Below, one piece after another: positions 5,712 through 8,925 of a stretch of 64,000 bases of DNA. How positions within the stretch are numbered: the first letter of the stretch is position 1; each line of letters begins with the position of its first letter. Position numbers and translations under genes: made by a program. The notes under the pieces were generated by a model. The model worked only from the letters and a program-made list of their open reading frames with translations. It was not told the origin of the DNA and ran no database searches. This DNA comes from Frigoriglobus tundricola (GTDB taxonomy: Bacteria; Planctomycetota; Planctomycetia; Gemmatales; Gemmataceae), in NCBI RefSeq assembly GCF_013128195.2, contig NZ_CP053452.2, positions 4,774,001 through 4,838,000 of the forward strand. The letters run 5' to 3'.

Positions 5712-7639
5712 TCACCTCACGGCCGCGACCATGCGCTGGAACCGCTTCGGAATTCCCGTCACGGGGCGAATTTCGATGCGGCGGAAGTAGATGGCGCCCA
5801 TGTACGATTGCAACTGGAGCCGGCCGCGCGTCAGCGGCGCCTCGGCGGTCGCGGTGGGCTGCCGCGATCGCGCAATCGCGAGTACCACAAAGCTGTTCAC
5901 AATGTGAAGAGCCGTGTCGCCCACGCACACCAATTCTACCTGGTTCCACAGTCCCAACTGGTGCTCACAGTTGCACAGAACCCGCGCCCGCATACCGGCC
6001 GGCCCCGTCGACTCCAACCGGCCGTCGCGCAGCTCGGCCAGGTCGCACAGGCGGTGGTCGCCCGTTCGGAAGTAGCCGCCCGTGTTCGGGGGATAGATTT
6101 CCATCTCGTGTGCCTTCATCATCCCGAGGAACCCCTGGCCGTGCGGACCAACCGCGTGGTAGTTCAGGCCGCTGTTGTGCGCCCCCTTGGGCGTCTCCCA
6201 GCGGTACTCCAACCGCAGGTGATAGTTCTCGTATTCGCCCTCGCTCGTGAGCGCGCCGTGGCGGGTGCCGCTGACCCGGATCACCGGGCTGGCGTCCTTC
6301 TCCACGATCGAGAACACGCCACTAGGATCCTCGCCGGGCCGGCCGCCCTGTAGGAACGTTTCCCAGCCGGTGAAGTCGCGGCCGTTGAACAGGCTGACCC
6401 ATCCCGTCTCCGCCTCCGGCTCCTCATGTGACGGCTGCCGGGCCGCGGTCGGCCACAGGGCCACGGCGAGGGCGGCGAGGGCGGCCAGGGCGGCCGCGGA
6501 CAGAGCGAACCCGGCAGCGACAATCAGGACGCGGCGGACGCGAACCGACCGGTGCGACAGGGCGGCCTCCAGATCGGCGAGCATCGTGGCGGCACCGGGG
6601 TACCGGCGGGCCGGATCCTTGGCCATCGCGCGGGCAACGATGTGGGCGGCGAGGGCCGGCACTTCGCGCGCGCGCGGCGGGGGGTCGGGGCGGGAGCGCC
6701 GCGGTGGGCCGCGGTCGCCTCGGCGGCCGTCGCGGCCTGGTAAGGGGGCCGGCCGGTCAACAGCGTGTAGTAGGTCGCGCCGAGGGAGTAGATGTCGCCG
6801 CTGGGGCCGGCCGGGTGGCCGGCCAGTACCTCCGGCGGCATGTACGCCGGCGTGCCGGCAATTTCGAAGGCGCCCCCCCCGTCGGTCTCGCGGGCCAGAC
6901 CGAAGTCGGAGAGCTTGGCGACCAGGGTTCCGGTCGCCCCGGTCAGGAGCACGTTTGCCGGCTTGATGTCGCGGTGGACCAGTCCCGCCGCGTGCGCCGT
7001 CGCCAGCCCGCGGCAGACGTCGGCGGCAATGCGCGTGGCGGTCGGCGGGTCGAACGGCCCGCCCTGCTTCAACCGGTCAGAGGCGGAGACGGCCAGCCGC
7101 TCCATCGCCATGTACCACACGCCGCCGTCGGACCCGGCGTCGTAAACCGTCACGATGTTCGGATGGGCCAGCCGGCCGGCCAGTCGGGCCTCCTCCGTTA
7201 TCTTCGCCGCGTCGGCCCGTCCGGTCAGCAACTTCACCGCCACCGGCCGGCCGATCACCGGGTCGTCGGCCTCGTAGACGCTGCTCATCCCGCCCCGGCC
7301 GATCAGCCGCGTCAGGCGGTACTTGCCGACCACCGATCCGACGCCCACCGCACTCGCCGCGGCCTCCGCAAACACGGCGTTGATGACGCGGGTGTCGTTC
7401 GGCAGGCGCTGGTGGTACTCCGCCGGGCGGGGGGACTCACCGGCCCGGTTGCGGCATTCGAGTTCGAGGTGGAGCAGTTCCGTGAGCCAGGCGGCCCGCT
7501 CTTCGGGGGGCGTGTCGGCCAGGTGGTCCCGAACGTCGGGGCGAACGGGACCGGCCCACGCCCGCTCGAAGCGCAAGCACACTGCGTCGAGCCGGCGCTG
7601 CGAGTCGAGCGGCAACCGTTCGTAAGCCGTCACGGACAT
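5712..7639 (-). pseudogene. Ser/Thr protein kinase fused to a 3-keto-disaccharide hydrolase (DUF1080) domain, frameshifted
   Basis: The first reading frame (ATG 7639) gives a planctomycete-type kinase: an N-terminal helical region (about 1-100), the glycine loop IGRGGMSSVYEADD, VAVKLL (Lys136), HRDIKPANVLL, DFGLAR and GTPAYMPPEVL. The kinase C-lobe is cut off near residue 323. The missing piece (LAAHIVARAMAKDPARRYP) continues in another frame, followed by a transmembrane segment (about 25 Ala/Leu residues) and a DUF1080 domain (TGWVSLFNGRDFTGWE ... WYFRTGDHRL-like, ending at 5712). The switch point is the alternating tract cgcgcgcgcgcg at 6665-6676. A one-base change there restores one frame of about 642 codons. 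The start overlaps the upstream sigma-factor stop by 10 bases. Either a sequencing error or a real slippage site is possible, so pseudogene status is provisional. Confidence 0.8.
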
Positions 7640-8190
7640 GCACCGCCCCAGATCGAGCGGATGAGCGCCAACCGGCGGGTGACAGTGCGGACGGTGCACC
7701 CGAGGCGGTCGGCGATCTCCTTGTTAGAGTGGCACTCGAGTTTCAGGCGGGCGACCTCCCGGGCCTGATCGTCGGGCAATCGCTCGAACAGGATCTGCAC
7801 CTCGTCAGCGGCCAGGGTCGCGGCGGCCGGATCACCGCCGCCGCCGGCCACCTCCACCGGGAGTTCGCCCCCCCCGCCGCGCCGCTTCCCGCGCGACTCA
7901 TACTTGTGGTAGTCCAACGCCTTGCGGCCGGTGAGAACGGCCAACACCTGCCAGAGATCGTCGCGGTTCTCCAACCGGGCGAAGCCGTTATCGGCGGCGG
8001 ACCGGTAGAACTGGTAAAAGGCCGACGCGGCCACGTCCTCCTCATCGGCCGCTCGGACGTCCAGGCGCCGCAGGCGGGTCCGGGCGAGCGAAACGACCCG
8101 CTCGTAGTAGCGCTCCCAGAGCGGGCCGAGTGCCTCCCGGTCGCCGGTCGTGAGCCGGTTGAGCCAGAGTGTCACCGAACCAGGGTCCAT
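7630..8190 (-). CDS. ECF-type RNA polymerase sigma factor, kinase-linked
   Basis: The protein has 186 residues. Sigma region 2 is seen as ALGPLWERYYERVVSLAR and DEEDVAASAFYQFYR. Sigma region 4 is LPDDQAREVARLKLE followed by the HTH NKEIADRLGCTVRTVTRRL. A Gly-rich linker (about 114-128) separates them. The ATG at 8190 (MDPGSVTLW) is chosen because sigma region 2 begins just after it; upstream codons lack family character. The gene ends inside the start region of the kinase gene (10-base overlap), so the two are coupled. Planctomycetes commonly pair this type of ECF factor with a Ser/Thr kinase gene. Phosphorylation of the sigma factor or a partner by the kinase is a reasonable inference, not shown here. 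Confidence 0.88.
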   Translation of the reverse strand: MDPGSVTLWLNRLTTGDREALGPLWERYYERVVSLARTRLRRLDVRAADEEDVAASAFYQFYRSAADNGFARLENRDDLWQVLAVLTGRKALDYHKYESRGKRRGGGGELPVEVAGGGGDPAAATLAADEVQILFERLPDDQAREVARLKLECHSNKEIADRLGCTVRTVTRRLALIRSIWGGACP

Positions 8191-8925
8191 GTCGCTGCCC
8201 CGTGTTAAGAATCTCAAAATCAAATTTATTCGACCCGACTGGCCGGAATGAGAAAAAATTGTGAAGCGCCCCAAAAAGGGACGTGAACGTGTCCTCACTT
8301 CGCCGCGAATGTCGTGAACTCATCGCACGAACTGACGCGGGTCCGAGGGCGCAACCGAGAGCAGGAGCCCCGGTGGCGAACCGCCCTCACCGCGGCGGGT
8401 TGTGCTCTGTGATGGGGGCTGATGGCGGCTCGCGTCACACGAAGCCGATTGGCCTGAGCCGGCAGGGATCGTGAAGCACCCGGGGAACAGTTTCTTGCTG
8501 ATAAAGGGACCAATCGTCGATGTCACGAATCGGTATTTGAGCACCGCTGCGGCCGCCCGGGGCGCTCGCCGGTAACCTCCCGCCCAAAATTTCTGTCCAC
8601 CACGGTGAGCCATAACAGGGGCTCTCCCCTGCTCGCTTGAGGCTCGGTCATCGGATGTTGTCCCGGATCGAGCGGCCCGGAGTAATGGCGACCATCGCCG
8701 ACTTGATCTTGCCTGCCGTTCGGCTGGCACGCGGTGCCGGAACATCCTGAAGCGGAGCGGCCCGGCGGCACAAGCGTTCGGTGCCCCGCCGGCTCGTGTG
8801 GTCTCGTTCGCAGCCTTTTATCGAATGCCTGTCACGGTGATTCGATCGAGCCCCTGTGTTGTGTGGAATTCGCTGATATGGACGTTTTTTGGTTGTTCCC
8901 CCACTACTCCTGGAGAGGTGTCGAC
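8191..8925. other. Intergenic region, divergent promoters expected
   Basis: This 735-base gap separates the divergently transcribed sigma-factor gene and the DUF1559 gene. The part next to the sigma gene (8210-8290) is visibly AT-richer and is the likeliest promoter site for it. No convincing coding frame, hairpin or repeat was recognised in 8300-8900; a strong Shine-Dalgarno GGAG at 8912 belongs to the DUF1559 gene. Confidence 0.5.

What the first reader, a model, noticed from the sequence alone, without database searches (positions are those of the whole stretch)
5712..7639. Kinase-DUF1080 fusion interrupted at a (CG)6 tract
The kinase C-lobe, TM and 3-keto-disaccharide hydrolase (DUF1080) domain are intact in another frame, and the switch falls exactly in cgcgcgcgcgcg (6665-6676). 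Either the base call is wrong, or this is a slippage hot spot that turns the sugar-binding domain on and off. A kinase whose extracytoplasmic part is a glycan hydrolase-like domain would be a direct sugar sensor.
Basis: partly seen in the sequence, partly recalled or inferred. Interest (0 to 1): 0.6.

Follow-up and report, generated by a model that had tools for sequence, protein, structure and literature searches.

The report
Sensor kinase gene, probable assembly frame error
A planctomycete bacterium has a membrane kinase joined to a sugar-hydrolase-like domain, a layout already known in its group; the break in its reading frame is most likely an error in this genome assembly rather than an on/off switch.

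Summary
The fusion is real. On the minus strand a Ser/Thr kinase starts at 7639 in one frame; the end of its C-lobe, one TM helix and a complete DUF1080 (PF06439) domain follow in another frame to 5712. One kinase profile matches 7-235 in the first frame and 234-278 in the second. Two congeners carry the same ECF-sigma + kinase-TM-DUF1080 pair in one open frame. The (CG)6 tract is where stated, but the two orthologs place the switch only within about 6659-6710 and my codon model at 6686.

Phase variation is not supported. The break lies inside the kinase fold; both ortholog loci lack a long CG tract; this assembly has more frame breaks than three congeners (13 vs 3 per 1.2 Mb); breaks at CG tracts also hit the only RNase E/G gene; and in a second kinase the step fits one base, not one CG unit. 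An assembly indel is the best reading; a true recent mutation is the main rival. STK-TM-DUF1080 is already described (PMC11032199). Side result: CG tracts coincide with frame breaks in this assembly.

The parts
7630..8298 (-). ECF sigma factor gene; overlaps the kinase start by 10 nt
   Evidence: ORF; PF07638 E 6.3e-30 for 7630-8259; same pairing in G002 and G007
6719..7321 (-). Ser/Thr kinase domain, first 204 of 263 profile positions, in the first frame (ATG at 7639)
   Evidence: PF00069 E 3e-44; HRDIKPAN and DFG visible
6659..6710 (-). zone of the frame switch by scoring against the two orthologs
   Evidence: codon model 6686
6665..6676 (.). (CG)6 tract
   Evidence: sequence
6679..6690 (.). 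G6-TC-G4 run beside the tract, another likely site of the indel
   Evidence: sequence; codon-model switch at 6686
6474..6530 (-). predicted TM helix in the second frame; basic before, acidic after (kinase inside, DUF1080 outside by inference)
   Evidence: hydropathy scan
5766..6404 (-). DUF1080 / 3-keto-disaccharide hydrolase-like domain, complete, in the second frame
   Evidence: PF06439 1-187/187, E 2.9e-24; one PDB relative, 3u1x, E 1.4e-5

Best explanation
The cell most likely carries an intact two-gene unit: an ECF sigma factor followed by a one-pass membrane Ser/Thr kinase whose outer part is a DUF1080 domain. The frame break in this record is an indel error of the assembly in a very G+C-rich stretch. 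Shown: the two frames, the intact congener genes, the pairing with the ECF gene in three genomes, the raised number of model-called breaks in this assembly, and their coincidence with CG tracts. Inferred: that the break is technical; that DUF1080 binds an extracellular glycan; that the kinase then phosphorylates and activates its ECF partner, as PknS does EcfK.
For: Single-frame orthologs with the same ECF neighbour. The second frame is undecayed: 320 codons, full PF06439 match. Breaks with at least 150 nt of coding on both sides: 13 in 1.2 Mb here vs 3 in 1.2 Mb of three congeners, one-sided p 0.011. Breaks at CG tracts also hit conserved genes: RNase E/G, single-copy in 7 of 7 genomes searched (own plus six congeners), open frame 868 aa here vs 976-1060 aa in the six; the L190 gene, 344 aa here vs 515 and 513 aa in G013 and G006; the L197 gene, 295 aa here vs 414-736 aa in 14 of 15 congeners, 250 aa in the other. 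In the L194 kinase one base fits better than one CG unit (506.2 vs 495.2). Lone breaks in genes with intact homologs are expected to be sequencing errors (PMC3711429, passages).
Against: No reads could be seen, and the sequencing method is unknown. The codon model is my own and not benchmarked; a genome with more real pseudogenes would look the same. The controls have lower G+C (0.636-0.664 vs 0.671-0.678) and fewer G/C runs. 7 of 11 long CG tracts examined show no break at the tract. For the target the step is unsettled: the two orthologs favour one base short by 5 points; the paralog L017 (by 2 points) and the genome's own kinases (by about 5) favour two extra bases, which would be one CG unit. 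In G008 only part of the L190 gene matches, in a 386-aa frame.
Confidence: 0.75

Rival explanations
1. The indel is real and recent: the strain has lost this kinase by a single frameshift.
For: Kinases are many here (155 PF00069 matches), and a close copy of this one is found in only 3 of 59 genomes, the source included (E<=1e-70), so it is dispensable in the group. The break lies in a run-rich stretch where real indels also occur (sequence).
Against: No further stop or frame break seen in either part; many other breaks in the same assembly, including in the only RNase E/G gene.
Confidence: 0.18
2. Reversible slippage at (CG)6 switches the kinase/DUF1080 protein on and off.
For: Alternating CG of 10 nt or more lies within 25 nt of 3 of 13 breaks, against 28 of 60000 random coding positions. 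4 of 11 examined (CG)6 tracts sit at or close to a break, two of them in kinases beside ECF sigma genes (the L194 ECF gene judged by eye only). The genome's own kinases favour a two-base step for the target.
Against: The tract is short and absent from both ortholog loci. The break is inside the kinase C-lobe. Genes hit include RNase E/G. The best-resolved case, L194, steps by one base. 7 of 11 tracts are unbroken.
Confidence: 0.05
3. Programmed -1 ribosomal frameshifting joins the two frames.
For: The second frame can be reached by re-reading one base.
Against: Orthologs are in one frame. By eye I see no X-XXY-YYZ heptamer in register in the zone (sequence; motif recalled).
Confidence: 0.02

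Closest known systems
Single-pass membrane Ser/Thr kinases of Planctomycetota with a periplasmic DUF1080 domain (PMC11032199)
   Same: Kinase inside, one TM helix, DUF1080 outside; [quoted passage not shown]
   Different: This record is split into two frames; pairing of such kinases with an ECF gene is not mentioned in the passages I read
PknS-EcfK of Xanthomonas citri and PknT-EcfP of Vibrio parahaemolyticus
   Same: A Ser/Thr kinase paired with an ECF sigma factor that it regulates; PknS is transmembrane and phosphorylates EcfK (PMC13147305 abstract; PMC8103513 passages)
   Different: No DUF1080 domain is mentioned in what I read; phosphorylation is untested here
DUF1080 3-ketoglycoside hydrolases (BT2157 characterised; CCNA_01705 proposed)
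   Same: Same Pfam domain (PMC9007349 passages)
   Different: Those have a single DUF1080 domain. Here it is tethered to a kinase. The NSG motif frequent in kinase-free DUF1080 proteins of this genome is kept in this protein but not in the G002 and G007 orthologs or the paralog L017

Membership tests
STK-TM-DUF1080 receptor kinases of Planctomycetota | kinase, one TM helix and DUF1080 in one polypeptide | tested here: inconclusive
   All three parts in order, but in two frames in this record; one frame in the two orthologs
ECF sigma factor paired with a membrane STK | adjacent co-directional ECF and STK genes in more than one species | tested here: met
   10-nt overlap in the window; adjacent in G002 and G007
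ECF sigma factor paired with a membrane STK | kinase phosphorylates the sigma factor | not testable with these tools
   needs protein
3-keto-disaccharide hydrolase (PF06439) | profile match over the curated cut-off | tested here: met
   86.6 bits, cut-off 26.8
3-keto-disaccharide hydrolase (PF06439) | hydrolysis of 3-keto sugars | not testable with these tools
   needs protein; motif partly kept: NSG present, a Q found in 12 of 17 kinase-free copies aligns with Y here
slippage phase-variable gene | repeat at the junction shared by orthologs | tested here: not met
   longest alternating CG in the two ortholog loci 8 and 7 nt
slippage phase-variable gene | frame step equals a whole repeat unit | tested here: inconclusive
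   target: orthologs favour one base, L017 and the genome's kinases two; L194 favours one base
slippage phase-variable gene | mixed tract lengths in one culture | not testable with these tools
   no reads available

The most novel reading that the evidence does not exclude
Alternating CG tracts act in this bacterium as contingency loci: they reversibly break signalling genes (two kinases beside ECF sigma genes, a SpoIIE-domain phosphatase gene) by indels, giving mixed populations in glycan and stress sensing.
Probability: 0.04. Interest if true: 0.7.

Novelty: new member of a known kind. Interest (0 to 1): 0.2.

Why it matters
If the break is technical, as I think, the case is a warning: in a very G+C-rich assembly, CG tracts and G/C runs can split receptor kinases and mimic phase variation. 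The underlying unit, an ECF sigma factor with a kinase whose outer part is a glycan-hydrolase-like domain, is a testable example of how Planctomycetota might sense sugars, but that kinase layout is already described.

Tried and rejected
Programmed frameshifting was rejected (single-frame orthologs; no slippery heptamer seen by eye). Two separate genes were rejected: the second frame's GTG at 6662 would start inside the kinase C-lobe, and NF033483 continues across the switch. Pinning the switch to the (CG)6 tract by homology failed because scores are flat. A first DUF1080 alignment had minus-strand loci in the wrong orientation and was dropped; one search replaces it. It used 18 of the 23 PF06439 matches plus the window (L019 is the window's own) and the two orthologs; the short matches L020-L023 were left out. 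The four-genome kinase list is cut off and was not used for counts. Structure prediction was not run. Paper searches: phase variation with Planctomycetes and frameshift gave 7 papers, of which I read passages of PMC3711429 only; slippage at alternating GC or Z-DNA (33 papers, 12 listed) and long-read indel errors (36 papers, 12 listed) were seen as listings only.

Full report
What is there. The gene is on the minus strand. Frame 1 starts at ATG 7639 and runs to 6524; it holds an N-terminal region and a Ser/Thr kinase domain that stops at profile position 204 of 263. Frame 2 runs from 6674 to 5712 and holds the end of a kinase C-lobe, one TM helix and a complete PF06439 (DUF1080) domain. NF033483 matches positions 7-235 in frame 1 and 234-278 in frame 2, so this is one kinase cut by a frame step. 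An ECF sigma gene (7630-8298) overlaps the kinase start by 10 nt.

Relatives. Of 59 genomes searched, the source included, 3 match the first part at E<=1e-70: itself, G002 and G007. The second part matches 12 of 59 at E<=1e-20, with G007 and G002 best after itself. In both congeners kinase and DUF1080 lie in one open frame of 645 and 657 aa, directly after an ECF sigma gene. The G007 protein is also found in a named record, 'MAG: Planctomycetota bacterium isolate SCN18_26_2_15_R2_P_68_10' (L205). The window's own genome has one further kinase-DUF1080 protein in one frame, L017, 641 aa.

Where the switch lies. I read through from frame 1 to frame 2 at every codon boundary near the junction, either re-reading one base or skipping two, and aligned the result to the orthologs. 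The 14 best placements span 6659-6701 for G002 (1138-1128) and 6659-6710 for G007 (1185-1177). Re-reading one base beats skipping two by 5 points in both. The more distant paralog L017 prefers skipping two, at 6710, by 2 points. Against the 30 best-scoring kinases of the genome (30 of 155 matches were held as loci), skipping two is better by about 5 points and the best position moves to 6722; this loop varies in length between kinases. So the step of the target is unsettled. The codon model places the switch at 6686, between a G6 and a G4 run. The (CG)6 tract is one candidate site, not the only one.

Is it an assembly error? I wrote a codon-usage Viterbi model with frameshift transitions and ran it on 1.2 Mb of this genome and 0.4 Mb each of G002, G008 and G013. 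At frameshift cost 30 it called 18 breaks here and 6 in the controls; 13 and 3 remain with at least 150 nt of coding on each side (5 and 3 dropped), one-sided p 0.011. With the same filter the counts are 26 and 11 at cost 20 (p 0.010) and 9 and 2 at cost 40 (p 0.033). The model is not benchmarked, some calls may be overlapping genes, and the controls have lower G+C and fewer G/C runs. The genome's stated completeness of 95.05% and contamination of 4.47% are compatible with split genes but prove nothing.

CG tracts. Three of the 13 breaks here lie within 25 nt of alternating CG of 10 nt or more, against 28 of 60000 random coding positions; at cost 20 it is 3 of 26, at cost 40 2 of 9. None of the control breaks does (0 of 3; 0 of 11 at cost 20), although the controls hold as many such tracts, 15 and 15; of 12 nt or more there are 2 here and 0 there. 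(CG)6 or longer occurs at 15 distinct places in the whole genome (19 overlapping hits; the reversed pattern gives 13 hits). Of these 15 I held 11. At 4 of the 11 the frame changes at or close to the tract: L190, L194, L197 and the target L201. At the other 7 it does not. The model calls L197 and L201 at cost 25, but L190 and L194 only at cost 15, and in L190 it places the switch 48 nt past the tract. L194 rests also on its kinase profile starting at position 54 right at the tract and on the N-lobe being readable in the other frame. L190 rests on homologs in one frame of 515 aa (G013) and 513 aa (G006) where this genome has 344 aa, aligned from residue 3 of the part just after the tract; a further G013 copy carries a TGA and in G008 only part matches (4 of 26 genomes match, the source included). 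In L197 the last 80 or so residues before the tract are 76-92% identical in 15 congeners, whose open frames are 414-736 aa in 14 and 250 aa in one, against 295 aa here. Shorter tracts (10 and 11 nt) coincide with breaks in a SpoIIE-domain gene (4713691) and in the RNase E/G gene (1368550; S1 part in one frame, catalytic part in the other). RNase E/G is single-copy in 7 of 7 genomes searched (own plus six congeners); its open frame is 868 aa here and 976-1060 aa in the six.

Reading. Breaks in conserved genes such as RNase E/G argue for errors rather than a switch. In L194 the conserved RFLREARA...HEN stretch comes out at 17 residues, the length in the 4 of 30 held kinases that fit the motif as I searched it, if one base is skipped (506.2), and one residue longer if two bases are re-read (495.2). 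So the step there is probably one base, which dinucleotide slippage would not give. Antonov et al. expect lone frame breaks with intact homologs to be sequencing errors rather than true indels, and look for repeats near the frameshift in clusters of related genes, with functions linked to phase variation before, to call phase variation (PMC3711429, passages). The ortholog loci here have no such repeat. Papers on residual indels in long-read assemblies were seen only in a search listing; which sequencing method was used for this genome is unknown.

How it most likely works. By inference: the DUF1080 domain sits outside the cytoplasmic membrane, binds a glycan or sugar, and changes the kinase's activity; the kinase then phosphorylates the ECF sigma factor encoded just before it, as PknS does EcfK (PMC13147305, abstract; PMC8103513, passages). 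The truncated frame-1 product would lack the end of the kinase domain, the TM helix and DUF1080 and would probably be inactive, so an 'off' state would not be a free kinase without its sensor. In 17 DUF1080 domains of this genome without an upstream kinase motif, N, S and G stand in 14, 15 and 17 copies at three adjacent columns. This protein keeps all three; the G002 and G007 orthologs keep none; L017 keeps only the S. That may mean binding rather than catalysis in the kinase-linked forms.

What is known. [quoted passage not shown] DUF1080 includes a 3-ketotrehalose hydrolase and a proposed 3'-ketolactose hydrolase (PMC9007349, passages), and is said to be related to GH16 in Pfam (PMC5352709, passage). 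The finding is therefore a member of a known kind, with a probable assembly error.

Noticed in passing
L194:70-2224 (G000:C1 2557447-2559601, minus): A second Ser/Thr kinase of the genome, beside an ECF-like gene (read by eye), is split at a (CG)6 tract: N-lobe in one frame, rest in another.
   Followed up: yes
G000:C1:1368550 (L168): The only RNase E/G gene is split at an 11-nt alternating CG tract; six congeners have it in one longer frame.
   Followed up: yes
G000:C1:7171814, 7255840, 7337229: Further model-called frame breaks in genes that look by eye like an HD-GYP protein, a HEAT-repeat protein and a large secreted protein, not at CG tracts.
   Followed up: partly
P0001 (G002), P0002 (G007): The orthologous kinases have HLD and DFS where the window protein has HRD and DFG; they may be weak kinases.
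   Followed up: no
L001-L018, window 5766-6404: The NSG motif of kinase-free DUF1080 domains is not intact in three of four kinase-linked ones, but is kept in this one.
   Followed up: partly
L202:1428: A model-called frame switch 73 nt before a (CG)7 tract; it may be a misplaced start rather than a break.
   Followed up: no
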